The notes under the pieces are model-generated. The model made no database searches, was not told the DNA's origin, and saw only the letters and a list, made by a program, of their open reading frames with translations. 64,000 bases of DNA from assembly GCF_004354985.1 (NCBI RefSeq), contig NZ_SMSK01000018.1:1-64000 (forward strand), read 5' to 3'. Numbering within the stretch: the first letter of the stretch is position 1; every line of letters begins with the position of its first letter. This stretch comes from Segetibacter sp. 3557_3 (lineage in GTDB: Bacteria; Bacteroidota; Bacteroidia; Chitinophagales; Chitinophagaceae). Positions 18,914 through 46,143 of this stretch are shown one piece after another. A program made the position numbers and the translations under genes.

Positions 18914-21900
18914 TCAACTTAATTTTAAAACAAATTTTTCGAAGTTGTCCGAACCAGCAACTTCAATCCGGGGCAAACTTAACAGGTCATCTGTTAATGT
19001 ACTCTTCGTGTTTATGCTTGCCACGCCCAAAGTATATCCACAGGCACCGATGAAATGTTTAACAACAGGGTCGATGTCCCCATAAGGATAGGCAAATAAT
19101 TTCACAGGTGATTTCAAAATATTCTGTAGTATAACTCTCGACTCAGCAGCTTCTTTGATCATTTCCACGTGCGACAGTCCTGTTAGATGGTACCCCGAAA
19201 GCGAATGTGATCCGAACTCAACCTCGTTTTCCTGTAAAGCTATAATCTCTTGTTTTGACAAAAATTCACCTCCGACATCTTGCATTCCGCTCTGGTTCGG
19301 TATATTGATGCCGTTTGCGGTTAAAAAGACGGTTGCATTAAATCCATATTTTTTCAACAATGGCCAGGCATGCTCGTAGAAATCGGAATAGCCACCGTCA
19401 AATGTCAACGCGATAGCATGACCTTGCAAGGGCTTACGGGTAAGTATTGCATTTTGCCAATCCTCCAGGCGGGCAGAATAATACCCTGCGTCGCGCAAAA
19501 ACGCTAGCTGTTGTTCAAAATTCCGCTTGTTCACACAGGGTCCCGCAGGCTTGCTTATTTGATCCCCGCTAATGTGCTGATACTTTAGAATTGGTAATTG
19601 TTGTGTTTCGCTTACCGCGAGTCGCCTTGGCAAAATGATGCTGCGAGCCGGCGCAACTTGTACCGGACTGCCTCCAGGCAAAAGCTCCGGCTGCTCAATC
19701 CTTTCCACCTGGTGCTTGTGCCTGGAAAAAAATGGAAAGTTCATTGTCTCCCGGCGAAATAAATGTATGGAGTAGCCGGAGGTTTGAATTTCCCTGACCA
19801 TTGTGAGATTAGGCGTTTTTGAAAAGATTTCGCCTATAAGGGTGGCACCAAAAGGTAAGGCCACAACTTCGCTGGTGCTATTCTGCTCTTCACCTAACTG
19901 GTTTGCGTGGGCCATAATTAAATACCCACCCGGCAAAATTGAACGGGCAACTTTTTTAGCTACATCCTTCAGCAACCTCAACTCAGTGATGTAGTAAAGC
20001 ACTTCGCTGCAAACGATAAGGTCTAAGGATCCGGGTAAGGAATCCGTTATAAAATTCAAATGTTGAAACCGGATGTTGTCCAAATGACTGCATCTTTCCC
20101 GCGCTCGTTGCAACGCAATTTCTGATATGTCACAGGCAAAAAGGTTATCCGTAATATTTGCCAACTGCATGGTAAAATGCCCTTCGGCACAAGCAATTTC
20201 AAGCGCGTTCTTAAACTTGCCGGGTGGTAACAGCGAGAGCGTAAGTGCGTTCTTGCTTTGTTCGTAAGGATGGCTACTGTTCCATGGATCATGGTTATTT
20301 GCGAAGATTGTCTCGAAATAAGACCTGCCATAAGGCTCGGCTGCTGTATCGGCTATTGCCTTTTTCTTGCTTACTGTTTTTGTATTAATACCAACCTCAA
20401 TAAGATTGGGGCAATAGCAAAATTGCCCAGGGCCGAAAGTTGGTTGTTTTTTCATGAAGCGATCCTCCAAGCCCTCGAAAAACGGTAACACGGCCAATGG
20501 TAATGTCACCCTACGCGAAGAACTGGTTCCAAAGTCGCCATCACGTCTTCCGATACATATTATCTCGTTAACCGAACCGAATTCGTGGTCCGTAACCGCG
20601 ACACTACTTTGCCCGCATGGATCTGAAGCCCTTTTCTGTGTCTTTGCTTCCAACAGCCTTTTGCGAATGGTTGTTTTTTGATCCAGGGGTTTACCAACTA
20701 GGGCTTCTCTAACGCAGAGTACGCATAAGTCAAAACCAGTTGTGATCGTGATGCCTGCCCGCAATGCCTGCGGGCTGACAATGTTTTTTTCCTCGTAAGC
20801 ACTCATGTCAACCATCCCAGCGACGACCCCTGCTACCGATAACATGATTTGTTTGGTTCCGCCCCGCAAAGAAAGCGCGGGTAATGTTTCACTGATTTCA
20901 ACAACGGGTATATGGGTGCAATCTATGACTTCTGCGAACTCAGACTCGGGTGTTTCAGGATCATAGAAAAGGGTACCGTCCCAACCATCGCGTTCCCATA
21001 ATTGCTGCAGAAATTTGGTCCACCCCCAGGTGTTATGATGATCCCGGAGATCACCCTTAATCTCTTTTTGCTCATAAACATTGTACTGGAAAAACTTTTC
21101 CAATATTAGCCAGGAGAACTCAGCGGCAATTGCATCTTTTAAAACCGGGGTAGTTACTATTCGGTCGCATACGGGTAACTCAATACTGCCGATTTTCTCA
21201 GACCCTATCTCTATAGAAATATGAATGCGTTCTGCTTCATCCGGTGCAACGATATCTATGATTTCTTCTGTGATTTCCATGCGTATTGCAAAGGTCTTTT
21301 CAACCATCGCGGGATTAGAGATCGCTGCATTCCGGAGCATCTTACGCGCCAATTCTGCTACCACCCTTTGTGCAAGTAATTTGTTACCCGTTTTCAATTC
21401 AAATGCAAACAGGAATTGCTTCAAACTGTCTACCGTAGCTGGCCACAATACGTAAACTGTGGAAGGCAGCTTGCAGGTTTGCCGCCAAATTGCATCAAAT
21501 AAGTTATCGGCAACAAAAGCAGGATCCATGTCGCAACAGGAGTCACTAACCAGATCGAGTAGGGCTCGACCGTCTTTACCTTCACTGATAAACAGACCGG
21601 CACACCAGCTCGCCCAATAAAATTGTTGCGCTTCAAGATTTGCCGGGTCAAGTCCATTGATATATTTTTTGTTCGGATTGCTAACCCTTGGGTCAGCCGA
21701 AAAGCCAAGTTTAAGAATTTGTAGCGCGGTACTAAAGAATTTATTAGCATTCCTCGAAATTGACTGCGGTGACATTCTATAAAATGCATGCACTTCTCTT
21801 AACTCACCAAAACGTGCCGACGTGCGTGCTACACGCTGCCACAAATCCCAATCTGTACAGATCGTTAAGCCAGGGGTGAATCCGCCTACACTGGTGACAA

Positions 21901-22384
21901 GTTCCTTTCGTACTATGCAGGAATGCATGATGAAAGCACAGGTTCGGGCAAATGCCGGGAACATATCTTCTGTAATCATTGGATATGTTGCACCGCTCAA
22001 TGCTCCCTCAGGCGTGATGATGTTCCAACCGCATACAACAGCGTCCAAATGAGCATTTGCATCCAGTTTTTGGCCCATGTTGTGTAAGTGCTCCGGTGAA
22101 ATCCAATCATCAGCATCAAGAAAAAGCAGCCATTCATGCTGCGCAATTGCAATACCTGTATTCCTTGCAACGCACACACCTTGATTCTCCTGCTTAATGA
22201 TTTTTATGCGCTTATCCTTTGCTGCAAATGGGCTAACTATCCCGTCGGTGTCATCAGTAGAACCATCATCGATGATGATTGCTTCCCATTCCTGATAACG
22301 CTGTGTAAGCAATGAACCAATTGTTTCACTAATGGTTTTTGCTGCGTTATATGCAGGAACGATCACTGAAATACCTGAGACCAT
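18914..22384 (-). CDS. Three-domain GT2 / methyltransferase / NodB-like fusion protein
   Basis: A 1156-residue cytosolic fusion. Residues 1-250: GT2 domain (VIVPAYNAAKTISETI, IIDDGSTDDTDG, FLDADDWISPEHL, ICTDWDLWQRV). Residues about 382-428: a small module shared with three neighbouring GTs (ISIEIGSEKIGSIELPV). Residues about 685-870: NodS-like SAM methyltransferase (YFETIFANNHDPWN, ALEIACAEGHFT, LIVCSEVLYYI). Residues about 930-1156: polysaccharide-deacetylase (NodB) fold starting LPILKYQHIS. In the NodB part the usual TFDDG is TFDGG and the usual H-S/T-x-x-H is HSLSG, so two of three metal ligands are replaced; FAYPYGD is kept. The three activities recall nodC/nodS/nodB, but here probably tailor the exported glycan. 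Confidence 0.85.
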   Translation of the reverse strand: MVSGISVIVPAYNAAKTISETIGSLLTQRYQEWEAIIIDDGSTDDTDGIVSPFAAKDKRIKIIKQENQGVCVARNTGIAIAQHEWLLFLDADDWISPEHLHNMGQKLDANAHLDAVVCGWNIITPEGALSGATYPMITEDMFPAFARTCAFIMHSCIVRKELVTSVGGFTPGLTICTDWDLWQRVARTSARFGELREVHAFYRMSPQSISRNANKFFSTALQILKLGFSADPRVSNPNKKYINGLDPANLEAQQFYWASWCAGLFISEGKDGRALLDLVSDSCCDMDPAFVADNLFDAIWRQTCKLPSTVYVLWPATVDSLKQFLFAFELKTGNKLLAQRVVAELARKMLRNAAISNPAMVEKTFAIRMEITEEIIDIVAPDEAERIHISIEIGSEKIGSIELPVCDRIVTTPVLKDAIAAEFSWLILEKFFQYNVYEQKEIKGDLRDHHNTWGWTKFLQQLWERDGWDGTLFYDPETPESEFAEVIDCTHIPVVEISETLPALSLRGGTKQIMLSVAGVVAGMVDMSAYEEKNIVSPQALRAGITITTGFDLCVLCVREALVGKPLDQKTTIRKRLLEAKTQKRASDPCGQSSVAVTDHEFGSVNEIICIGRRDGDFGTSSSRRVTLPLAVLPFFEGLEDRFMKKQPTFGPGQFCYCPNLIEVGINTKTVSKKKAIADTAAEPYGRSYFETIFANNHDPWNSSHPYEQSKNALTLSLLPPGKFKNALEIACAEGHFTMQLANITDNLFACDISEIALQRARERCSHLDNIRFQHLNFITDSLPGSLDLIVCSEVLYYITELRLLKDVAKKVARSILPGGYLIMAHANQLGEEQNSTSEVVALPFGATLIGEIFSKTPNLTMVREIQTSGYSIHLFRRETMNFPFFSRHKHQVERIEQPELLPGGSPVQVAPARSIILPRRLAVSETQQLPILKYQHISGDQISKPAGPCVNKRNFEQQLAFLRDAGYYSARLEDWQNAILTRKPLQGHAIALTFDGGYSDFYEHAWPLLKKYGFNATVFLTANGINIPNQSGMQDVGGEFLSKQEIIALQENEVEFGSHSLSGYHLTGLSHVEMIKEAAESRVILQNILKSPVKLFAYPYGDIDPVVKHFIGACGYTLGVASINTKSTLTDDLLSLPRIEVAGSDNFEKFVLKLS

Positions 22385-31898: not shown

Positions 31899-33206
31899 TT
31901 ACGCCCTGATGAGCTTTTCTTTTGTGTATGCTCCACTTTGCGATTGTTCAACGGCCTGCATGAATCCTTGTAAAATGGTGTGCGTGCTCAGTTGCTGAAC
32001 GGCGTACGCACGTGCATTAATACTAACGGTTCCATGTTCGTTCATGCCATCAAGTGCTTTCGCAATGACCTCGTTAAGCGCTTCCTGGTTGTCTGGCTCC
32101 GTTAAGATTCCGATTCTGTTTTCCTTGACAATTGAGTAAAGGCTCGTTCCGGCACTGGCGGTTACAATCGAGATACCACCAACAGCAAGTATAGTCGTCA
32201 GTTTCGACGGTAGCAGCAAATCGCCTGCATTAGCTTTTTGAATTACCAGGTGAAAATCAGCAAGGTTCAAAAATCGATTAAGTTCTTCCACTGGCTTCAG
32301 CGGTAGAAATACAACGTTCTGCAGGTTCAATTTATTTTTGAGTGCTTCGAGCGTGGTCTTATATGGGCCCGATCCGCAAATAATAAACTTTACCCGGGTA
32401 TTGCTTGCAAAACGTTTGGCCGAATGCAGGATTGCCTCCAATCCTTGTTTTACCCCAATTCCGCCTGAATACAAGAAGATGATATCACCCGGCAAAAAGC
32501 CGTATGCAGTCTTAATTTCAGTTTTGTCATGCAGGGGCGTAAACTTTGTTGTATCCACCCAATTTGGAAACAGTAATATGTTTTTGTCTATTTTATTTTT
32601 AATCTTTTTAATCATACCCTCCGATATCGTACTTATCCGGTCGGCTCTTTTCAGGATAAACTTTTCTATTGCGAACAACACGTTAAGCAAAGCAGGCGAC
32701 TTGACGATTTCCAGCTCGCGGGCTGCGTCAATCTGAAGGTCCTGGATGTGATAGATGAACTTCGTACGTTTGAAGGTCTTGTAAAAAATCGCCAGTAGTC
32801 CCAGCGCAAAGGGCGGCGCAACCGTTATCACGTAATCATATCGCTTGGCAAAAAGCAACCGGAAAACCACAAAAAAGGCAGAAAAGAAAAAGCTGAAGTC
32901 TGAAATTATTCGCGTGAGACCCGACGGGCTTGCGGGTATATAATGCGGACAGCGAATGATCTTAATTGGAGAGGCGTTTTCGCCAGGCATTCTCAATTCG
33001 CTTTTGTACCACGATGCGTCTTTGCGGTAAGGCTCTTCCACTTTCCACTGTGGGTAATAGGGAAAAGTAGTAATAACGGCACACTCGTAATTGTTCGTTG
33101 CCAGCCAATCCATCATTTCCCCGCTATATTTTCCGATTCCTGTAGGTTCAGGAAAGTAATTCCCGCCAATAAGCAGAATCCTTTTTTTAACTGGTGGTTT
33201 TTGCAT
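31899..33206 (-). CDS. WcaI-type GT4 glycosyltransferase
   Basis: A 435-residue GT-B enzyme. ILLIGGNYFPEPTGIGKYSGEM and TTFPYYPQW are strongly characteristic of the WcaI family (colanic-acid cluster fucosyltransferase-like). IYHIQDLQIDAA and LFPNWVDTTKF also fit. The C-terminal half has FLYSGGIGVKQGLE and a degenerate donor-binding region (LLLPSKLTTILAVGG). Before the inversion described at 34063-39708, a WcaF-type acetyltransferase gene would have lain directly upstream, an association also known from colanic-acid-type clusters. Confidence 0.9.
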   Translation of the reverse strand: MQKPPVKKRILLIGGNYFPEPTGIGKYSGEMMDWLATNNYECAVITTFPYYPQWKVEEPYRKDASWYKSELRMPGENASPIKIIRCPHYIPASPSGLTRIISDFSFFFSAFFVVFRLLFAKRYDYVITVAPPFALGLLAIFYKTFKRTKFIYHIQDLQIDAARELEIVKSPALLNVLFAIEKFILKRADRISTISEGMIKKIKNKIDKNILLFPNWVDTTKFTPLHDKTEIKTAYGFLPGDIIFLYSGGIGVKQGLEAILHSAKRFASNTRVKFIICGSGPYKTTLEALKNKLNLQNVVFLPLKPVEELNRFLNLADFHLVIQKANAGDLLLPSKLTTILAVGGISIVTASAGTSLYSIVKENRIGILTEPDNQEALNEVIAKALDGMNEHGTVSINARAYAVQQLSTHTILQGFMQAVEQSQSGAYTKEKLIRA

Positions 33207-33636
33207 TCCTGGAAAACTGTAAATATTTGTATGCTACCTCGTGTGCAAGTTTACTGATAAACAATCATCAATAAACTTGATGGCCTTTATAGGAAAGGGT
33301 AGGGGGTTCTAAAGGGAAGTAGTCTTCTAATTGTTGTTGCGATGGCTGATAAAACCTGAATGTGCTGACCGGGCTTAGTAAGTGCTTTCCGGTGGGCGAT
33401 TGGCTGCGGAAAGTGCTCGGGCAACCTGCAGACGAATGGAGGAAACGCCAGCTGTGTTGTTCGGCCCATTTTAACAAGGAAAGATTCTTTGTGCTCCGGC
33501 ATTTGTTGGCTATTGTACCCCGGTTGTGTCACTCCCTTGTACTCCATAGCCCTGAGCAACCTTTATTTTCCGCAGTAAATTGTTCCCTGCCTGGCTACGA
33601 GGTAGGGCTTAGCGAACACAAAGTTCACCGGCATAG
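33207..33636. repeat. 430-bp gap with degenerate interspersed-repeat sequence
   Basis: Several overlapping short open frames on both strands, none with a credible protein. Positions 33524-33548 (GTTGTGTCACTCCCTTGTAC then TCCAT) look like a diverged copy of the 30-base interspersed repeat (19 of 25 bases by eye against copy C reversed) and share an exact 15-mer with 108-122. No transposase remnants seen. Confidence 0.45.
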
Positions 33637-34062
33637 TCAATCAGTAGGGTGATGTGATTGTTTAAAGGATGAAAGCGTTTCCCTGTCGCGGAAACATACC
33701 GCCGGACTGCCGGCACAAATTTTTCCTGCAGGAAGCGATTTAAATACGGACGATCTTGCACCTACAACGGTGCCTTTTCCAACAGTTATACCCGGGGCTA
33801 CAAACACGTCGGTAGCCAGCCAACACTCATCTTCAATCGTTATCGGCGAATTCGTTGTCGGAAACTCAACATACCTGTAATCGTGAGAGCCTGCACATAA
33901 GTAGCTTTTTTGTGAGATTACGACATTGTTGCCAATGTTAATGTCGGCAAGGCTGTAAAGCACAACCCCGTCGCCTATCCAGCTATAATCGCCAATGGTA
34001 ACCTTCCACGGAAAGTGGGTATGTACAGATGCTCGAATGATCACATTGGTTCCAATCTTGGC
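33637..34062 (-). pseudogene. 3' part of a WcaF-type acetyltransferase split by inversion
   Basis: Encodes about 141 residues from AKIGTNVIIRAS to the stop: the left-handed beta-helix domain (FPWKVTIGDYSWIGDGVVLYSL, CWLATDVFVAPGITVGKGTVV) with the His-containing AGSHDY block of O-acetyltransferases. The open frame continues to 34116 only by reading into foreign sequence. The missing front (53 codons, LWWIVEALFFRTSPQFLYGWRR) is on the opposite strand at 39550-39708. Joined, they give 194 residues, against 195 for the intact paralogue at 35070. A shortened protein from an internal start would lack the conserved N-terminal segment and is probably inactive. Confidence 0.88.
34030..34039 (+). repeat. 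Left arm of 10-bp inverted repeat near inversion breakpoint
   Basis: TGCTCGAATG lies 23 bases left of the inferred breakpoint. Its reverse complement CATTCGAGCA lies at 39713-39722, 4 bases right of the other breakpoint. The offsets differ, so simple crossover at this repeat does not restore the genes; it may be coincidental. Confidence 0.4.
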
Positions 34063-35089
34063 TGCAGTGTTGTATAACGAACTCCTAAAAAGATCAATTG
34101 ACGCGCGATTTATCAATACAAGTGCAGCTAAAAACGAAAGTAACCAGGGAAAGTTTTCGTTAAAAAAGATATTTTCTTTTCTCCATGTTTATCGTTCAAC
34201 CTTGTTTGTCGGTAAGTACGATGTTGTATATATGACCCCGGGGCAGACTTTCTTCGGGGTGGTAAAGTATGCACCATTCATTTTTTCATGCCTATACCTA
34301 AAGAAACCCTTTATCATTCATGTACATGGTAACCATTTTGGGAGTGAGTATAAATCGTTAACGGGTTTCAAAAAGAAAATGTTTAAGTCCTTAGTAACGA
34401 AAGCCCGGGCCGGAATCGTACTCTCCCATTCTCTGCGGCACAATTTTGAGTCGTTACTTGACAATGAGCGAACATATGTTGTTCCAAACTTTGTGGAGGA
34501 CTCCTTATTTGCAGTTGACGCTCCGAAGCAAACAGACAAGTTGAGGATCCTTTTTTTGAGTAACCTCATGGAGGAGAAAGGGGTATTTGACCTACTGGAT
34601 GCACTACGTAAATTAAAAGACAAAGGAATACTTTTCGAAGCTGTTTTTGCCGGCTCAGTTGAAAGTAGTCTTGCCGGGAGGCTGGACTCCCTCTTCTCAA
34701 GCCTAGGTGACAACGTCAAATACATTGGAACAATTTCAGGAGAAGATAAACGACAGCGACTGTTGGATGCAAATGTGTTGATATTACCAACCTATTACAA
34801 GATGGAAGGTCAGCCGATTGCTTTATTGGAAGGCATGGCAACCGGGAATATAATCATCAGCACCAGGCACGCTGGTATACCCGATATTGTGAGCGAACTA
34901 AATGGCTTCCTGGTTCCCCCGAAATCGTCTGCCCACATTTGTGCTTGCCTGGAAAGGCTAAGTACCGACCTCCCAAAGATGATTCAAAAATACGCAAATA
35001 CAAATAAGGCATATGCACAACAAAATTTCACTGTTGATGCATTTACAAACAATATTTTACAAGTTCTCAATGCAAGTACAAAAACTTAA
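34063..35089 (+). pseudogene. GT4 glycosyltransferase lacking its native first 20 codons (split by inversion)
   Basis: The GT-B enzyme body is intact: FINTSAAKNESNQGKFSLKKIF, DVVYMTPGQTFFGVVKYAP, FIIHVHGNHFGSEYKSL, FLSNLMEEKGVFDLLDAL, and PTYYKMEGQPIALLEGMATG with the retaining-GT E-x7-E motif. The open frame extends upstream to 33995, but those residues are antisense WcaF sequence. The true N-terminus MKVLLVGPFPPPINGCSNA, with the glycine-rich donor loop, lies on the minus strand at 39709-39767. Without it, activity is doubtful. The 3' end overlaps the acetyltransferase start at 35070 by 20 nt. Confidence 0.88.
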
Positions 35090-35657
35090 TCAGTTCCGGC
35101 TACCGGCTGGTTTCAGAGGTCGGCCAGGTTGGCTGGTGCAACTCTGGTGGATAATTCAGGCTGTGCTTGTGAACACTACACCTCAGTTTATGTACGGGTG
35201 GAGAAGGTTTGTTTTCAGATCTTTTGGCGCTAAGATTGGGAAGAGTGTAATGATTCGGTCGTCTGTTCAAATGCAGTTTCCCTGGAAAGTTGTCGTAGGG
35301 GACTATAGTTGGCTGGGGGATGGTGTCGTTTTATATAGCCTGGGTAACATCGAGATAGGGAAACATGTAGTCATATCGCAGAACTGTTATGTTTGCGCGG
35401 GATCTCATGATTATACCCGACCAGATTTTCCGATCAACAAAAATCCGATTGTTATAGAAGATCAGTGTTGGCTGGCTGCGGATGTATTTGTTGGGCCGGG
35501 AGTTACCATTGGCCTCGGGACAGTTGTGAAATCTCGATCATCCGTTTTGAAGGATCTTTCAGGTGGGAAAATCTACGGCGGAGTACCTGCAATTTTCGTT
35601 GGTAATCGCGACGGAGCGGTGAAGTCGACGAGTACTTCCTCGGAGTCATTGCCCTAA
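35070..35657 (+). CDS. WcaF-type O-acetyltransferase (intact paralogue)
   Basis: A 195-residue hexapeptide-repeat acetyltransferase. The N-terminal segment VQLWWIIQAVLVNTTPQFMYGWRRF precedes the left-handed beta-helix (AKIGKSVMIRSSVQMQFPWK, YSWLGDGVVLYSL, CWLAADVFVGPGVTIGLGTVV), with AGSHDYTRPDF holding the likely catalytic His. Expected to transfer acetyl from acetyl-CoA to a sugar of the glycan. The start MQVQKLNQFRLPAGFRG is preferred over an upstream ATG because it aligns with the paralogue fragment at 39550 (MEYQRLDLFKLPPGSRG). Its ancestral operon is the minus-strand cluster; it is reversed with the 34063-39708 block. Confidence 0.92.
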   Translation: MQVQKLNQFRLPAGFRGRPGWLVQLWWIIQAVLVNTTPQFMYGWRRFVFRSFGAKIGKSVMIRSSVQMQFPWKVVVGDYSWLGDGVVLYSLGNIEIGKHVVISQNCYVCAGSHDYTRPDFPINKNPIVIEDQCWLAADVFVGPGVTIGLGTVVKSRSSVLKDLSGGKIYGGVPAIFVGNRDGAVKSTSTSSESLP

Positions 35658-35839
35658 GAACAGGTAGAAGGCTTACTTAAAATGTTTTCAGAAGGAATTA
35701 AAAATGTATTAAGAATTTTAATAAACCATGTTCAGCGATTAACTTCCAATATTTCGACTGACGCCCTATGAATAGCACAACAATACTTCTATGATTTCGT
35801 TTGAAATTCGTTTCACCTTCCCCGAAACCGAAGTATGCT

Positions 35840-38800
35840 ATGAAAATTCTAATCACATTATTTCTATTACTGATACTGTCTCAACACTGTTTTAGTCAAA
35901 GCTCAGATGTCAACACCATTGTAACAGATTACGAAAACAGGATTCGATTAAACGGTGGCGTGATCAGTGCTAGCGACCTGCAAGCAGTCAATACATTTGT
36001 AAGGGCTGCTAAAACAAACAATTATTGGGACAAAATAATCGACCTCGCACCACTTGCAGGACAAGATCTTAATGCGGCTTTGGTGAAGTTGAAATTCCCT
36101 GTTCCGGGAACAAGTTTGATTGCCAACAACGGATTTCAACCTTCTGATTATACGCCCACGTCAGGGTTAAAATTGAACCGTTCCTGTTTCCTCAACTCAA
36201 ATACAAATCTGAGCAAACTTAATTTGCAGGGACTATTTGGTTATTCCATGTGGATTGAAGATAAGGGTTGGGGATGGATTGGCTTACCAAATTCCGCCAG
36301 TCCTTACTCGACTTTGGCAGTTGCCCCTTCCAGTGTGAATGCTTATATTGGTTCAGCTTCCAACTATGCTGTAGTGGGCGGGGGAGTACCTTCATCAAGG
36401 GAGGGATTTTTCCACGTAATAAAACAATCACTTAATACTGCAAAAGTGTTTGTTGATGGTAGACAAGTTGGCATTACCAGCAATACCCCAACTACTACAG
36501 AGTTAAGGGACGCGGCCATTCAGGTTTTTAGAGATGCCAGCGACATAGGAAAGGGACAATTTTACTGTATCGACAACGGAATGCTTAGCAATGAACAAGC
36601 CGTTTTGTTTTTTAACGATGTAAAACGTTTGTTACAGGACCTCGGCCGAAGAATAGCCCCGCCAGTATTTTCCGCGCACGGCCTGTACACCCAAACACAG
36701 TTGGTATCCATTACCGAAAGCCCCACCAACTCCCTGATGGCCGGTGCTACCATTCACTATACTTTGGATGGTACGACACCAACTGTCTTGAGCCCTATTT
36801 ATAACGCACCCTTAGCAATAAACAAAACGACCCGTCTACGAGCCATCGCAGTCAAAAATGACCGAGTCTCAGAACAGACGGATAAATGGATTTCGATTGT
36901 GCCGCAAGGGTTCACATCCACCAAATACTACACTGCTCACGTAATGGTCAACCTGCTGGCGTTTACCGACAACATGGATGAATGGCTGAAGCAAATGAAA
37001 GCATCCGGTTATAACCTGATCTGGGCTCACCTTGACGATTATTCCGGCAATTATATTTCAACCTTGCGAAAACTTATGGATGCATCTGCCCGGGTCGGTG
37101 GAATTCCGGTTATGCCAGGTCCATCTTGGTGGGTAGAGCCTGCAAGTGTTAGCCAGATGTACACTGACACCTGGAACCATCCGGCACTGTTTACCATTGG
37201 CGGCAAAAAAGTTTACACGGGCTGGGACTACCAAATGGACAACCAAAGTCAACTGGACAACTTGCTGGCTGCTCAAAATATTTCAACGGACGATTATTAC
37301 CTATGGGTGCATTCAAGGTACCCTATTTCCTACAATGATGGTGCAACATGGCTCGGGGAGAATATGACCACTTCCGGTTACCTGAGCTGGTTTGGTACAT
37401 CTGACGCCCGTAGCCTCGAAGGGGTTCATCACCTTTACGATACCCGTCCGCAAATAGACGGCCTGATCAATTTTGCAGTTGACCAGGGGAACAAATACTC
37501 TATCATCAAAACCAATAGATACATCACTCAATCCTCAGTGCCCAGGGGTAAGTTTTCGATGGCAGGAGTAAGTTCTTTTTATGCCTCTGTATCTTTCAGT
37601 GATTTTGGTTTTAATGGTGCAGCAGAAATCTGGGATAGTCTTTTAGTAGCTCCTGCCCATTCCAGGCCTACGGCAATGAGCGATATTACTGCTAATGATT
37701 ATGCTGAGCTTTCCTATATATCACCACTGGTTATTCCTGCTGTAAATGGAATGTCGTTTGTTCCCCCGCTAAACGCAGGCTTCAACCTTGGCGATAATGT
37801 ACGGTATCCTATTGCAGATCATAGCGGAATTCAAAAATTCTTAAGACCATGGGTAGAGGCTTACAAAAACAACCTGCCTGCCCCTACTTTCCAAGAGGAT
37901 AGGATGTTCTCGCACTACTATCTGCATCCAAGTACAGCGACCCCAAACCCCGTTCTTCCAACCGAATTTAGTAACTATGCGCATTTGAATCAGTCGTGGT
38001 GGAACAAAACCGTTTATGCAACCGGCCATATTGAAGTCGGCGGAGGAAACCAGGTATACGGAATAAAAACGCGGTTTGAAACCGACAAAATCAAGATGGC
38101 TGCACACCTCACCGCACCGGCACAACTTAAAATCAACAATACATTATCCGAACTGAAACCCGCCGGGGCTGCTTATTTTGAGATCGATCGCGACGCGTTC
38201 CGGGGTACGCCAACATTTAGCATTGTAAGAAACGGGGTTGAAGTAAAAACCGGAAAAGGTCTTCAGCCAATCACCGATAATGTTTTTCCCGGAGGATGGA
38301 ACTTCTTGTCAACTGAGATAGATCCTCAAGTAGACAGTGCCTCAATAAAGTTCAACGGCAAAGTTTTTCTGCAGGGGGCTTATAACGCGGGTACAGGAAG
38401 AATGAATAATGCCCTGAATATGTTAGGTATTTTGCAGGCAAAAGCAGCAACCCAACCTTATAATAAAACACCCACTAGTTACACGGGTACGGAATCGGTT
38501 AACGCCACCTTTTTTGCCAATCACCAAAACATTGTTGACTGGGTGTTACTGGAATTACGCGACTCGGCTACTAATAGTACCCTAACAAGAAAGGCATTAT
38601 TCGTGAATACCGACGGTGTGCTCGTAGACCTTGATGGCTCAACAACACAAATTGGGATCCCGGGTATTGCCCGGGGTAAATACCAGGTGGCTATTCGCCA
38701 CAGGAATCATCTTGGTATCAAATCTAAAACGACCCTAGATTTCAATGGTGGCTCAGCAGCCTACGATTTTACCACATCTGCCTCTAGTTCATTTAGCAAT

Positions 38801-39088
38801 CAAAGCTACTCTTCCACGGTTCAGATTGGAAGCATCTGGGCAATGCGGGCCGGAAATGCAAACGTTAATAACAATGTGAAATTTAACGGCCCCGATAACG
38901 ATCAAAACCAAATCCAAAATTCAGGTCTCGAGGGCTCGATTTCGAGTGTTTTAATGAATATGTATACCACGTCGGATATCAACATGGACGGAAGCATAAG
39001 AACGAATGGGCCGAACAACGATCAAAATTTCCTACTCAATATGATCCTGAACGGAATGCTGGGTAACATCATCTATGAGCAGCTTTAG
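35840..39088 (+). CDS. Large secreted GH71-like protein with dockerin-like C-terminal module
   Basis: A 1082-residue protein from the ATG at 35840, which gives a clean signal peptide (MKILITLFLLLILSQHCFS); the longer frame from 35801 starts at TTG. Residues about 75-265 look like a LamG-type sandwich (SGLKLNRSCFLN, YSMWI). Residues about 273-353 are a chitobiase/hexosaminidase C-terminal-type domain (IHYTLDGTTPTVLSPIYNAPL). Residues about 362-690 resemble glycoside hydrolase family 71 (alpha-1,3-glucanase), mainly from YYTAHVMVNLLAF, ALFTIGGKKVYTGWDYQ and DITANDYAELSYISP. Residues about 836-1082 match the C-terminal module of the protein at 12752. It may trim, release or bind the glycan made by the cluster. 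Confidence 0.75.
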   Translation: MKILITLFLLLILSQHCFSQSSDVNTIVTDYENRIRLNGGVISASDLQAVNTFVRAAKTNNYWDKIIDLAPLAGQDLNAALVKLKFPVPGTSLIANNGFQPSDYTPTSGLKLNRSCFLNSNTNLSKLNLQGLFGYSMWIEDKGWGWIGLPNSASPYSTLAVAPSSVNAYIGSASNYAVVGGGVPSSREGFFHVIKQSLNTAKVFVDGRQVGITSNTPTTTELRDAAIQVFRDASDIGKGQFYCIDNGMLSNEQAVLFFNDVKRLLQDLGRRIAPPVFSAHGLYTQTQLVSITESPTNSLMAGATIHYTLDGTTPTVLSPIYNAPLAINKTTRLRAIAVKNDRVSEQTDKWISIVPQGFTSTKYYTAHVMVNLLAFTDNMDEWLKQMKASGYNLIWAHLDDYSGNYISTLRKLMDASARVGGIPVMPGPSWWVEPASVSQMYTDTWNHPALFTIGGKKVYTGWDYQMDNQSQLDNLLAAQNISTDDYYLWVHSRYPISYNDGATWLGENMTTSGYLSWFGTSDARSLEGVHHLYDTRPQIDGLINFAVDQGNKYSIIKTNRYITQSSVPRGKFSMAGVSSFYASVSFSDFGFNGAAEIWDSLLVAPAHSRPTAMSDITANDYAELSYISPLVIPAVNGMSFVPPLNAGFNLGDNVRYPIADHSGIQKFLRPWVEAYKNNLPAPTFQEDRMFSHYYLHPSTATPNPVLPTEFSNYAHLNQSWWNKTVYATGHIEVGGGNQVYGIKTRFETDKIKMAAHLTAPAQLKINNTLSELKPAGAAYFEIDRDAFRGTPTFSIVRNGVEVKTGKGLQPITDNVFPGGWNFLSTEIDPQVDSASIKFNGKVFLQGAYNAGTGRMNNALNMLGILQAKAATQPYNKTPTSYTGTESVNATFFANHQNIVDWVLLELRDSATNSTLTRKALFVNTDGVLVDLDGSTTQIGIPGIARGKYQVAIRHRNHLGIKSKTTLDFNGGSAAYDFTTSASSSFSNQSYSSTVQIGSIWAMRAGNANVNNNVKFNGPDNDQNQIQNSGLEGSISSVLMNMYTTSDINMDGSIRTNGPNNDQNFLLNMILNGMLGNIIYEQL

Positions 39089-39549
39089 CTGCATGCAGAA
39101 AGATGTGAAGAACACCTCTACCCTGGGTAATCCAGGGGGTTTTCTGCCAATCACTTTACGTAGGTGCTGGGGTTCACCCACCTGGTGCAATCAGTCTACC
39201 TTACCTGTTTTACAGCGGTTCGCTTGTATTAACTAATTATTAGCAATTTATCAGCAGGCCATCGATGTAAATGAAACCGTGTTTTCTCAGTACTTTGGCA
39301 CGTTTTTACGAGTATGCTGGCGGGCTAGAGAGGGCGTTGGAGCGGTATTCCCAATCCTGATGTGCTCAATATAGCTGATTGTCAAATATATATTTGACTG
39401 TAATAAAATAGACACCCTTAAAAACCCGTTATTCTTACTATTCACAAGTTTAACTAACCGGCATGGTCAAGAAAAGTCCTGAAATTGATAGAGCGTATTC
39501 GAATGTTACTGCGGAAGATTATGTCTCGTCTAATAAATCGCCTTTGTTC
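39089..39549. other. Gap before the split WcaF front part
   Basis: 461 bases without a supported gene apart from the terminator at 39121. The open frame containing the WcaF front could start at 39463, but the first 29 codons have no counterpart in the paralogue, so 39550 is preferred. An AT-rich stretch at about 39380-39450 may hold the promoter of the original WcaF gene. Confidence 0.4.
39121..39143 (+). terminator. Intrinsic terminator after the GH71-like gene
   Basis: CCCTGG-GTAAT-CCAGGG forms a 6-bp GC-rich stem with a 5-nt loop, directly followed by GGTTTTC, 33 bases after the stop codon at 39088. Good position and shape for a rho-independent terminator, with a short T run. Confidence 0.6.
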
Positions 39550-39708
39550 ATGGAATATCAACGACTTGATTTATTTAAGTTGCCCCCGGGCTCCCGAGGT
39601 AAGTCCCGCTGGTTCGTTCAACTCTGGTGGATCGTAGAGGCGCTATTTTTCCGTACATCGCCTCAATTTCTTTATGGGTGGCGACGGTTTCTGCTAAGAA
39701 GCTTTGGT
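39550..39708 (+). pseudogene. 5' part of WcaF-type acetyltransferase split by inversion
   Basis: 53 codons from MEYQRLDLFKLPPGSRG to LYGWRRFLLRSFG, matching residues 1-53 of the intact acetyltransferase at 35070 with the same spacing. Beyond 39708 the frame runs 22 codons through antisense GT4 sequence to a stop at 39774. The remainder of the gene is at 33637-34062 on the other strand. The hexapeptide domain is absent, so the encoded peptide cannot be an active enzyme. Confidence 0.88.
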
Positions 39709-39767
39709 TTCGCATTCGAGCAGCCATTAATTGGAGGAGGAAAGGGGCCAACAAGTAAAACCTTCAT
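39709..39767 (-). pseudogene. First 19 codons of the split GT4 gene
   Basis: Minus-strand ATG at 39767 begins MKVLLVGPFPPPINGCSNA, a classic GT4 N-terminus (beta-strand then P-P-P-x-x-G loop). It starts 28 nt after the stop codon of the upstream GT4 gene (39796), as expected in this operon, and ends abruptly where antisense WcaF sequence begins. With 34063-35089 it forms a 361-residue enzyme. Confidence 0.88.
39713..39722 (-). repeat. Right arm of 10-bp inverted repeat near inversion breakpoint
   Basis: CATTCGAGCA on the plus strand, reverse complement of 34030-34039. It lies within the first codons of the split GT4 gene. Confidence 0.4.
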
Positions 39768-39795
39768 TATTTAATCAGGTGTTTGAAGCAACAGA

Positions 39796-40923
39796 TTAGT
39801 TGAGTTGCGTGCGAAATATATCCAGAACTTTTTTTGCATTATACCGGGATGAAATCAGCGGTATAAGTTCCTTCGAACTTTGTTGTATTCGCTTCCTTTC
39901 ACCTGGATTTTCTATAAGGTGATTAAAAGCTCGACTAAAGGCATCCACGTCTTCAGTTTCGCACAATATGCCATAATCAGGAGAACTGATCAGTTCTACC
40001 GATGCACCAACTGTATTGCTTGACACGATCGGCACGTTTGCGGCTATTGCCTCGTTAATCACCACGGCCCATCCATCGTAGCGACTCGCAAAAGCAAAAA
40101 TGTCTGCAAGTCCGAAAAAATACTTTAGCTCTTCCGGTTTTTGAAATCCCATGAAGCTTATCCGCTCATCCCCGTTTCTTAATTCTTCAAGTCTTTGCTG
40201 CGCCTCCCCACTGCCCAGGATGATAAGTCGAAGGTTGCGATGATCTACCTTTTTCATCGCTTTAACCAGGATATCCATTCCTTTACGTTGTATTAACGCA
40301 CCCGATGACAGGATGATTATTTCGTTGTTGGGCTTATATTTTTTACGGTACTCTCCAAGTACTGCAGGGTCAAGCGCAGTAAAGCTTCTCTCGTCGATGT
40401 TGTAAGGAATGATAAACTTTTTGGGGTTAACCTGGTAAGCAATAAAGCTTTCCGCTGCTTTTTTGCCTACGCAAAAAATAGCCTTGCAGCAGTAGTTGAG
40501 GATTCTGAGGTATAACCACTTAAATCTGTATTTCAAGGGACTCTTAACCTCAAACAGGGGTTCAGAAAAATAAGCGACTTTCTTTTTTTTAAAGCGGTGA
40601 ATCAACAGTGCTACCGTTGCGTTCGGCGAGGCGTAACTGCCTCCAATAATGACGTATTGGCTTTTGTCTCTTGAGGAAACTGAAAAAATGTCCCAACTAA
40701 AATGAAAGTCCAGTACCCGCTTTTGGAGCAAACGGGCGATGAAATTGTCTCTTAGCACAACTGCTTCGTAATTACTCGGAGGGGTAAAACTCCACTCCCG
40801 GTTACTCTCCGAAACTGCATAGTAAATCACTGTCAGGTCGAACAGCACCGCTAATTCTTCAAAAAACGCAAGCTGATACGGTGTTGGTATATTGGTATAA
40901 AAAGAAAGTGAAGGTTTAGGCAT
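39796..40923 (-). CDS. GT4 glycosyltransferase
   Basis: A 375-residue GT-B enzyme. SFYTNIPTPYQLAFFEEL at the N-terminus and VIIGGSYASPNATVALL in the acceptor domain; YNIDERSF, ILSSGALIQRKGMDIL and FASRYDGWAVVINEAIAANVPIV in the donor domain, the last with the conserved acidic pair. The start overlaps the upstream polymerase gene by 8 nt. It is the last intact minus-strand gene before the right inversion breakpoint, and the split GT4 front begins 28 nt downstream. Confidence 0.92.
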   Translation of the reverse strand: MPKPSLSFYTNIPTPYQLAFFEELAVLFDLTVIYYAVSESNREWSFTPPSNYEAVVLRDNFIARLLQKRVLDFHFSWDIFSVSSRDKSQYVIIGGSYASPNATVALLIHRFKKKKVAYFSEPLFEVKSPLKYRFKWLYLRILNYCCKAIFCVGKKAAESFIAYQVNPKKFIIPYNIDERSFTALDPAVLGEYRKKYKPNNEIIILSSGALIQRKGMDILVKAMKKVDHRNLRLIILGSGEAQQRLEELRNGDERISFMGFQKPEELKYFFGLADIFAFASRYDGWAVVINEAIAANVPIVSSNTVGASVELISSPDYGILCETEDVDAFSRAFNHLIENPGERKRIQQSSKELIPLISSRYNAKKVLDIFRTQLN

Positions 40924-42223
40924 ATTGGAGCTTACGAACTTTGAAGCAGGTTTTTAAAACAACCCAGATCGGAATGTACATATACAGTGTGAAGATGATC
41001 ATGGGCATCATGTTCTGTGTAATAAAGTAAAAGCAACCCACATACAAGCAAATATAAAACAGCCTTGATCCGAAGTTGGTCGACGAACTTTTGTGCAGTA
41101 AGCGGGTGTAGTAGCCAAACAATACAAAAAATAAGGGTGCTCCCCAAAAAAAGCGATAAAAGCTATCAATCATGCCGGTTTCAGCTGAGCCCTGTGCCGG
41201 CTTAATGTTGCTGTACTTCCTCATCACCGTGAAAATATCAGTCGAAAATGAAAACCAGGTTGGCTTTTCCGCCCACATAGCCCGCGGAATGAAGTTGATG
41301 AATGGATAAAGCCATTTAAGTCCATAATCACAAGTCACCGCAACCTGGTTTGCCTGGAAGGCGTTATATGCAGTAACAAACTCGTTGCCTTCGTCTATTC
41401 CTGATCCGCCAATAAGCAGCTCAGGTTGTTCGACAAGGCGATCTATAGTCAGGTTTATTTGCTCGGAAAAAGTCGTATAGGGTGAGTAGAACTTCCTGAT
41501 CTGAACCGTTAAGGTGAGTAAAAGCGCTAATGCTGCCCCCGAAATCGCTATACCTTTGTATTTGGACAACAGCGTAGTCAGGCGCAGGCTCATTTGATTC
41601 TTCTGGTTAAACAAATAGGAGAAAATTAAAATTACACCTAATCTGATCCAACTTCCCCGTTGTTGTTGAATATAGGCGTCGTAGCAAAGAAACAGGAGAA
41701 TACATGCCAGGAAAATCAATCCCTTTTTTGAAAGCGTTTTATTCAGGAAGGAGTTGAATAACAAGAGCACCGATGAAAAAATGAAGTACCTCAATTCATA
41801 GATATAGCCACCTACGCTAAAATCTCCACTGTTGTGCCCGTAAAAGTAGTAAGGACCCGATTTATAAATAAAGTAGCCATACCCAGCGAGCCCAATAACC
41901 CCGGTCTGGATAGAATAGTTTTCATACTTTTTGTAGTCAACAGAAGTTGACAAAACTCCGTTGTTTCCTTGTTGATTATTTAATCCCATTGAGTCGCCTG
42001 CAATAAAGCCGACATAACACAGGAATATGAAGGCCATAAACGATAACTCGTACTCATTATTCACCAGACCTAATTTCCTGAACGTAGGAAAAAGTTGAAG
42101 ATAGGGAACAATGTAAAGCATCAACGTAAGTATAGAGAACACAAATGCAATCGATGACACATGCAATGAACATATCTTATAGACTACAAGCAGCAAAAAA
42201 AAGTAAACCAGTATTTCCACCAC
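40916..42223 (-). CDS. Wzy-like O-antigen/oligosaccharide repeat-unit polymerase
   Basis: A 435-residue integral membrane protein with about eleven hydrophobic segments and a large periplasmic loop between about residues 235 and 345 (QIRKFYSPYTTFSEQINLTIDRL, WLYPFINFIPRAMWAEKPTW). The loop with its IPR..W..KP and GSAETGMIDSFYRFFWG blocks is what I know from Bacteroidota oligosaccharide repeat-unit polymerases. It would polymerise undecaprenyl-linked repeat units in the periplasm. Start codon overlaps the upstream GT4 stop by 1 nt. No Wzx flippase is present in the window, although one would be expected for a Wzy pathway. Confidence 0.82.
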   Translation of the reverse strand: MVEILVYFFLLLVVYKICSLHVSSIAFVFSILTLMLYIVPYLQLFPTFRKLGLVNNEYELSFMAFIFLCYVGFIAGDSMGLNNQQGNNGVLSTSVDYKKYENYSIQTGVIGLAGYGYFIYKSGPYYFYGHNSGDFSVGGYIYELRYFIFSSVLLLFNSFLNKTLSKKGLIFLACILLFLCYDAYIQQQRGSWIRLGVILIFSYLFNQKNQMSLRLTTLLSKYKGIAISGAALALLLTLTVQIRKFYSPYTTFSEQINLTIDRLVEQPELLIGGSGIDEGNEFVTAYNAFQANQVAVTCDYGLKWLYPFINFIPRAMWAEKPTWFSFSTDIFTVMRKYSNIKPAQGSAETGMIDSFYRFFWGAPLFFVLFGYYTRLLHKSSSTNFGSRLFYICLYVGCFYFITQNMMPMIIFTLYMYIPIWVVLKTCFKVRKLQYA

Positions 42224-45187: not shown

Positions 45188-45751
45188 TTAGAGATCGGTT
45201 GTAGTGGACAGGTGCACTCTACTCAGCGCTCCTGTCCCTTGCATTATTCCCGAGTACCGGTTCAGCCAAACTGACCAAAGTACAAAGATTAACGAGTAAG
45301 CTATGATGTTAAAAAGATAGTGGTGATTAAAAGAAAGCGAACGGTAATCGTAAACGGCATTAAGTGCAAGCGCTGAAATTCTTACCAGGTTCAGAACATG
45401 AATGATCATTATGCCAACAGGGATAAACCAAACCTTTTTAGCAGCGGATCCCGGTAAGGCAATGATCAAACCGGCAAACTGTGCAAACAATACAAGACCA
45501 TTACAGGGATGGTCAACAAAAACAACATCAAGCCCATTGACGTTCACAATGGTGCCTTTTAAAAAAGCCTTATACCCAAGTAAATTGATCAGCACATTGC
45601 TACCCTTAGCAGACTGCAGTGTAAGCCATGGGTCCAGCCGGTGAATGAACGGGTTAAGTATTTGCCAACCAATTACGAGAGCAGAAAAGATAACAACAAA
45701 CCGGGTAACGGCTTGTATTTGTTCACGTTTTACACCAGTTGACATCCGCAT
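45188..45751 (-). CDS. Exosortase-family cysteine transpeptidase
   Basis: A 187-residue membrane protein with about five hydrophobic segments. The three exosortase active-site residues are visible in order: Cys in VDHPCNGLVLF, Arg in LNLVRISALAL and His in FNHHYLFNIIAY. Exosortases cut C-terminal sorting signals of secreted proteins and are usually encoded within exopolysaccharide clusters, as here. A small protein with such a signal is encoded directly upstream (45769-46002, 17 nt away). The size fits the short Bacteroidota exosortases rather than the longer EpsH type. Confidence 0.88.
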   Translation of the reverse strand: MRMSTGVKREQIQAVTRFVVIFSALVIGWQILNPFIHRLDPWLTLQSAKGSNVLINLLGYKAFLKGTIVNVNGLDVVFVDHPCNGLVLFAQFAGLIIALPGSAAKKVWFIPVGIMIIHVLNLVRISALALNAVYDYRSLSFNHHYLFNIIAYSLIFVLWSVWLNRYSGIMQGTGALSRVHLSTTTDL

Positions 45752-45768
45752 CTTACTTCTAATTTGCC

Positions 45769-46002
45769 CTACTTCGATTGATTGGGCTTATTGTACAATT
45801 TCTTAATGGCATATACACCACCGGCAATCAGCAGCGCGGTTGCTCCACCGTCAAACGGAACGGAATTCGGAATATTTTTACCGTGTGCATTGCTTTGCAC
45901 CGGAATTTTTTCCTTATTGCATTGAGCGGTTGCCGTATTATTATAGGCAGCTAGTAAACAAGAACAAACCACAACTTTGCCTAAAAAACGCAAGGATATC
46001 AT
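45769..46002 (-). CDS. Small exosortase substrate with PFDGG sorting signal
   Basis: A 77-residue secreted protein from the ATG at 46002 (MISLRFLGKVVVCSCLLAAY); a longer frame to 46128 begins with unlikely sequence. A signal peptide (residues 1-27, ending TATAQ) is followed by only about 22 mature residues (CNKEKIPVQSNAHGKNIPN), then VPFDGG, a hydrophobic helix ATALLIAGGVYAI and a basic tail KKLYNKPNQSK. This tripartite end matches the PID-CTERM type of Bacteroidota sorting signals, with Phe in place of the usual Ile. The exosortase gene follows immediately. After processing, the mature product would be a tiny peptide. Confidence 0.82.
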   Translation of the reverse strand: MISLRFLGKVVVCSCLLAAYNNTATAQCNKEKIPVQSNAHGKNIPNSVPFDGGATALLIAGGVYAIKKLYNKPNQSK

Positions 46003-46143
46003 AAAAATTATTTTCAAGATAGACGTGATTGTAAGCCAGAACGTTGCATACCAGCAAAAAGTATCCTTGCCTGCTAATATAAAATGTAACGAACAGTTAG
46101 CAAGTAAACAGTTGCTGAAGGATATCATGGATCAATGCACCTC

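What the first reader, a model, noticed from the sequence alone, without database searches (positions are those of the whole stretch)
34063..39708. Reciprocal inversion that splits a GT4 and a WcaF acetyltransferase gene
Both ends of a plus-strand block lie inside genes whose missing halves sit at the other end on the opposite strand. Reversing 34063-39708 restores both frames exactly: 53 + 141 codons give a 194-residue WcaF (intact paralogue in the window: 195) with junction RSFG/AKIG identical to that paralogue, and 59 + 1027 nt give a 361-residue GT4 starting MKVLLVGPFPPPINGC, 28 nt after the upstream gene. All cluster genes then face one way. If reversible, this would be an on/off switch for a sugar transfer and an O-acetylation of the surface glycan.
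Basis: partly seen in the sequence, partly recalled or inferred. Interest (0 to 1): 0.92.

Follow-up and report, generated by a model that had tools for sequence, protein, structure and literature searches.

The report
Inversion splitting two glycan genes
In this assembly a 5.6-kb piece of a sugar-polymer gene cluster lies backwards and cuts two genes in half without losing a base, but it lacks the marks of a reversible switch and looks like a one-off rearrangement or an assembly error.

Summary
Compared as separate pieces, never joined in a tool, 39550-39708(+) matches residues 1-53 and 33637-34062(-) residues 54-181 of the intact WcaF paralogue, without gaps; three NCBIfam models put the pieces at adjoining positions. 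The GT4 pieces are in frame by length and fit homologues to within one residue. Twelve ORFs left and 22 right of the block are all minus; the block is plus.

The switch reading is not supported. The bases next to the break do not match. No match to two recombinase families lies on this contig, but nine tyrosine recombinase matches lie elsewhere. A 10-bp inverted repeat flanks the breaks at 23 and 4 bp, found in about 1% of random site pairs; crossing over in it would leave both genes out of frame.

Best reading: one blunt inversion, perhaps by Ku/LigD end joining, that disabled the GT4 and cut the WcaF N-terminus from its hexapeptide domain. An artefact is the main rival: no reads, no same-species genome and no related cluster could be examined.

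The parts
34063..39708 (+). Inverted block, 5646 bp
   Evidence: Both ends cut genes whose other halves lie beyond the opposite end; only plus-strand stretch in the cluster
33637..34062 (-). WcaF1, C-terminal 141 codons plus stop, with the hexapeptide repeats
   Evidence: Paralogue residues 54-181; NF007797 199.2 bits, cut-off 192; Hexapep 44.4 bits in the ORF 33637-34116
39550..39708 (+). WcaF1, N-terminal 53 codons
   Evidence: Paralogue residues 1-53; NF007797 positions 2-52, 49.7 bits, under the whole-protein cut-off as a fragment
39709..39767 (-). GT4, first 59 nt, with the P-rich/glycine start motif
   Evidence: Translation; same motif in homologues
34063..35089 (+). GT4, remaining 1027 nt
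   Evidence: PF00534 81.8 bits and PF13692 74.3 bits in the ORF 33995-35089; N-terminal PF13439 26.5 bits, under its cut-off of 28.5
35070..35657 (+). WcaF2, intact paralogue, 195 aa
   Evidence: NF007797 248.7 bits, cut-off 192
35801..39088 (+). 1095-aa ORF with chitobiase C-terminal-like, Fn3-associated and GH71 domains
   Evidence: PF13290 56 bits, PF13287 54.4 bits, PF03659 51.2 bits
34030..34039 (+). Left arm of a 10-bp inverted repeat, 23 bp outside the left break
   Evidence: Only two copies in the window; distance
39713..39722 (-). Right arm of the 10-bp inverted repeat, 4 bp outside the right break

Best explanation
A single, non-programmed 5646-bp inversion inside an exopolysaccharide-type cluster. 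Shown: the block lies backwards relative to two genes, no residue is lost in WcaF, the bases next to the break do not match, and neither recombinase family searched matches on the contig. Inferred: two double-strand breaks were rejoined nearly blunt with the middle piece flipped, possibly by Ku/LigD end joining. Inferred effect: the GT4 loses its N-terminal glycine-rich loop and with it its activity. WcaF1 loses its first 53 residues but keeps its hexapeptide domain, and the intact WcaF2 may cover part of its role. WcaF2 and the GH71 gene now run against the operon. Without repeats at the break, reversal should be rare.
For: Exact adjacency of the WcaF pieces in the paralogue and three family models. 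In-frame GT4 pieces. One-way cluster around the block. No matching base on either side of the break for two positions. Ku over its cut-off in the genome, with LigD 3'-phosphoesterase and ATP-dependent ligase domains beside it. No stop inside the pieces (the only stops counted are the terminal ones), so the event, if real, is recent.
Against: The confirmed spontaneous inversions of PMC3411829 (passages) all had inverted repeats at the endpoints, 12-18 bp in the five verified; candidates with 7 and 9 bp were not verified. Rejoining four ends without losing a base is unusual (general knowledge). The LigD domains lie in two frames that change at an A10 run, so LigD may be broken or the base count wrong. 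Ku presence does not show that it acted. No read evidence.
Confidence: 0.55

Rival explanations
1. Assembly or record artefact: the middle piece is backwards in the sequence but not in the cell.
For: Joins without loss and without homology are what a backwards-placed piece would give. The draft has 35 contigs, no SSU rRNA found, and frame breaks elsewhere. No read or second strain was available.
Against: No long inverted repeat surrounds the block to mislead an assembler (longest arms found in 33000-41000 are 26 nt at 77%). No N in the contig. A single chimeric read would not give both reciprocal joins.
Confidence: 0.3
2. Reversible, recombinase-driven switch of a GT4 and an acetyltransferase.
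For: Surface-glycan locus; published invertons have 10-40 nt repeats (PMC11892184, passages) and a 10-bp pair flanks the breaks. Nine tyrosine recombinase matches exist in the genome, and a recombinase may be encoded far from its site (PMC5903667, passages). Both genes remain open in pieces.
Against: The repeat is not at the break, and crossing over in it shifts the joins by 19 nt in sum, out of frame for both genes. No matching core at the break; a 2-bp CA match lies at positions 3-4 inside the block side, where by my reading the conserved WcaF glycine would be lost. No tyrosine or serine family match on C9; no IS110/Piv-type match in the genome.
Confidence: 0.08
3. Replication template switching helped by the 10-bp inverted arms.
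For: Arms next to both breaks, the only copies in the window; 135, 197 and 816 of 20000 random site pairs share an inverted 10-mer within 40, 50 and 100 bases.
Against: Such an event should leave the arm or a duplication at the join (general expectation); none is seen. The pair is absent within 30 bases and was noticed after the fact. Local alignment scores are ordinary (0.139, 0.087 and 0.569 of 1000 null pairs as high at 30, 60 and 150 bases).
Confidence: 0.05

Closest known systems
Invertons, e.g. Mpi-controlled polysaccharide loci of Bacteroides fragilis (PMC5903667, PMC11892184; passages)
   Same: Inverted DNA in a surface-glycan locus
   Different: Known ones are bounded by inverted repeats at the crossover; here none. 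The block holds genes and splits two of them.
Gene-altering programmed and intragenic inversions (Milman et al.; Chanin et al. 2024; seen only as reference-list entries, otherwise recalled)
   Same: Inversion joins gene parts
   Different: As recalled, those need repeats in the genes and give alternative products; here one state gives two broken genes.
Spontaneous inversions between short inverted repeats in Salmonella (PMC3411829; passages)
   Same: Unprogrammed small-scale inversion
   Different: The confirmed cases had repeats at the endpoints; none here.

Membership tests
Inverton (site-specific inversion) | Inverted repeats of about 10 nt or more at the crossover | tested here: not met
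   No match next to the break; 10-bp arms lie 23 and 4 bp outside and do not restore the frames
Inverton (site-specific inversion) | A recombinase that acts on the site | tested here: inconclusive
   No tyrosine or serine family match on C9; nine tyrosine matches and one broken serine-type locus elsewhere; no IS110/Piv type
Inverton (site-specific inversion) | Both orientations in one population | not testable with these tools
   No reads; one genome per species
WcaF family acetyltransferase (NF007797) | Score over the curated cut-off of 192 bits | tested here: met
   WcaF2 248.7 bits; WcaF1 C piece alone 199.2 bits
Colanic acid WcaF equivalog (TIGR04008) | Score over the cut-off of 326.3 bits | tested here: not met
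   WcaF2 236.6 bits; C piece 194.9 bits
GT4-type glycosyltransferase | Glycos_transf_1 domain over its cut-off | tested here: met
   PF00534 81.8 bits, cut-off 26.4
GT4-type glycosyltransferase | N-terminal domain over its cut-off in the present chimeric frame | tested here: not met
   PF13439 26.5 bits, cut-off 28.5; several intact GTs here also miss it, e.g. 39796-40923 with 17 bits

The most novel reading that the evidence does not exclude
The block is reversibly inverted by an enzyme that needs no identical core at the crossover, perhaps guided by the 10-bp arms just outside, so that one flip turns a glycosyltransferase and an O-acetyltransferase of a surface glycan on or off together.
Probability: 0.04. 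Interest if true: 0.85.

Novelty: new member of a known kind. Interest (0 to 1): 0.33.

Why it matters
If real, it is a clean example of a small inversion without repeats or loss in a bacterium that encodes Ku, in a glycan locus. If an artefact, it warns that drafts can hold gene-splitting inversions that annotation would pass over. If a switch, it would fall outside the known rules for invertases.

Tried and rejected
Recombination between the two WcaF copies: 67% identical in DNA over 272 bp, but the break's other partner is the GT4. Dispersed element at 33520-33542: one copy in the window, outside the block, and the right end gave no such match. Crossing over in the 10-bp arms: rejected on frame. 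The uninverted order in relatives: the 40916-42223 protein matched only its own genome among 394 drawn from the family. GT4 matches: 56 of 59 genomes at E 1e-3 and 22 of 396 at E 1e-20 with at most five candidates scored per genome, own genome included in both; the best-scoring outside match in each was 31% identical, and I looked at no neighbouring genes of these. The GH71 ORF's last 862 residues matched 58 of 344 genomes, own included, at most two candidates scored per genome, mostly in the C-terminal part. Genome contigs: one Pedobacter locus, 47% over a 37-residue stretch. Viral contigs: none. Plasmids: 135 records, all under 60% identity. Rfam and tRNA: nothing in the window. Paper searches listed nothing that I recognised as this locus; one found no paper.

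Dropped rows: one search aligned 16 of 27 loci (11 dropped because read on the wrong strand, one aligned row has no N-terminus). One search used 32 of 34 (L018, L019 gave no hit); L044 and L061 gave the same protein; 16 of 32 did not fit my motif pattern. The null counts skipped close pairs as misses. In one search, 0.006 of 1000 pairs at 50 bases and 0.033 of 300 at 100 had an inverted match of 10 or more.

Full report
What is there. The window is the first 64 kb of contig C9 (130,655 bp) of a 6.75-Mb draft genome in 35 contigs. No SSU rRNA was found (the same search rang in 9 of 14 controls, so it can miss). From about 15 kb to 63 kb lies a run of glycosyltransferase, ABC transport, polysaccharide export, acetyltransferase and exosortase-like genes. 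From 15204 to 65856, ORFs of 110 aa or more are minus, 12 to the left and 22 to the right, except the three of the block and its cut ends.

The split genes. I compared the pieces apart. The piece 39550-39708(+) matches residues 1-53 of the intact WcaF paralogue and 33637-34062(-) matches residues 54-181, without gaps. Three NCBIfam models agree on the adjacency. For the GT4, 39709-39767(-) gives a 19-residue start with a P-rich/glycine motif, and 34063-35089 holds the rest. In homologues the spacing between the motif glycine and the C piece is 5 residues in one alignment (9 motif-bearing rows of 16) and 4 in another (16 of 32, 15 distinct). The window has 5.

The break. Position by position, 7 of the 20 bases around the break match in inverted orientation, none within two bases of it; CA matches at positions 3-4. 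By my reading, a compensating shift of one base keeps the WcaF glycine, so the break is known to about one base. A 10-bp inverted repeat occurs exactly twice in the window, at 34030-34039 and 39713-39722, where shuffles expect 0.08. As the pair was noticed after the fact, random site pairs are the fairer control: 135, 197 and 816 of 20000 share an inverted 10-mer within 40, 50 and 100 bases, and the observed pair is not within 30. Local alignment scores there are ordinary. Crossing over in the arms would put both genes out of frame.

Machinery. Phage_integrase gives 9 matches, none on C9. Resolvase gives two adjoining matches on C17, one with a stop inside. The IS110 type, which as I recall includes the Piv invertase, gives none. 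Ku scores 186.1 bits. Beside it are a LigD 3'-phosphoesterase domain (139.4 bits) and an ATP-dependent ligase domain (130.5 bits) in two overlapping frames that change at an A10 run. That may be real or a base-count error.

Relatives. I found no genome with the same cluster. The 435-aa protein 40916-42223, with no Pfam match and Wzy-like by my judgement only, matches its own genome alone among 394. GT4 relatives are distant. The uninverted order was therefore not seen anywhere; it is inferred from the pieces.

Interpretation. A real, unprogrammed inversion fits best (0.55). The joins without homology are unlike the confirmed spontaneous inversions of Salmonella, which had inverted repeats at the endpoints (PMC3411829, passages); Salmonella lacks Ku as far as I recall. 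That leaves an artefact at 0.3. The switch has little support (0.08), though a recombinase may be encoded far from its site (PMC5903667, passages). The likely effect is loss of the GT4. The WcaF1 C piece keeps its hexapeptide domain and WcaF2 is intact, so acetylation may persist.

Noticed in passing
window 45188-46128: An exosortase-like gene beside a small protein with a PID-CTERM sorting signal inside the glycan cluster; exosortase X model 154 bits, under its cut-off of 170, general exosortase signature and PID-CTERM over theirs.
   Followed up: partly
window 33497-33554: A short dispersed element: 15 further matches in the genome at E 1e-3 or better, with a core of about 23 bp (GTACAAGGGAGTGACACAACCGG in the window); only 40 of 167 candidates were scored.
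   Followed up: partly
window 38300-39085: The last 250 or so residues of the GH71 ORF recur in proteins of many sizes: 58 of 344 family genomes, own included, match the ORF, mostly there. Perhaps a sorting or anchoring domain.
   Followed up: no
window 18914-22384: A 1156-aa ORF combining a GT2, a methyltransferase and a polysaccharide deacetylase domain.
   Followed up: no
L031 635-683: LigD phosphoesterase and ligase domains lie in two overlapping frames that change at an A10 run: a homopolymer slip in the cell or in the sequence.
   Followed up: partly
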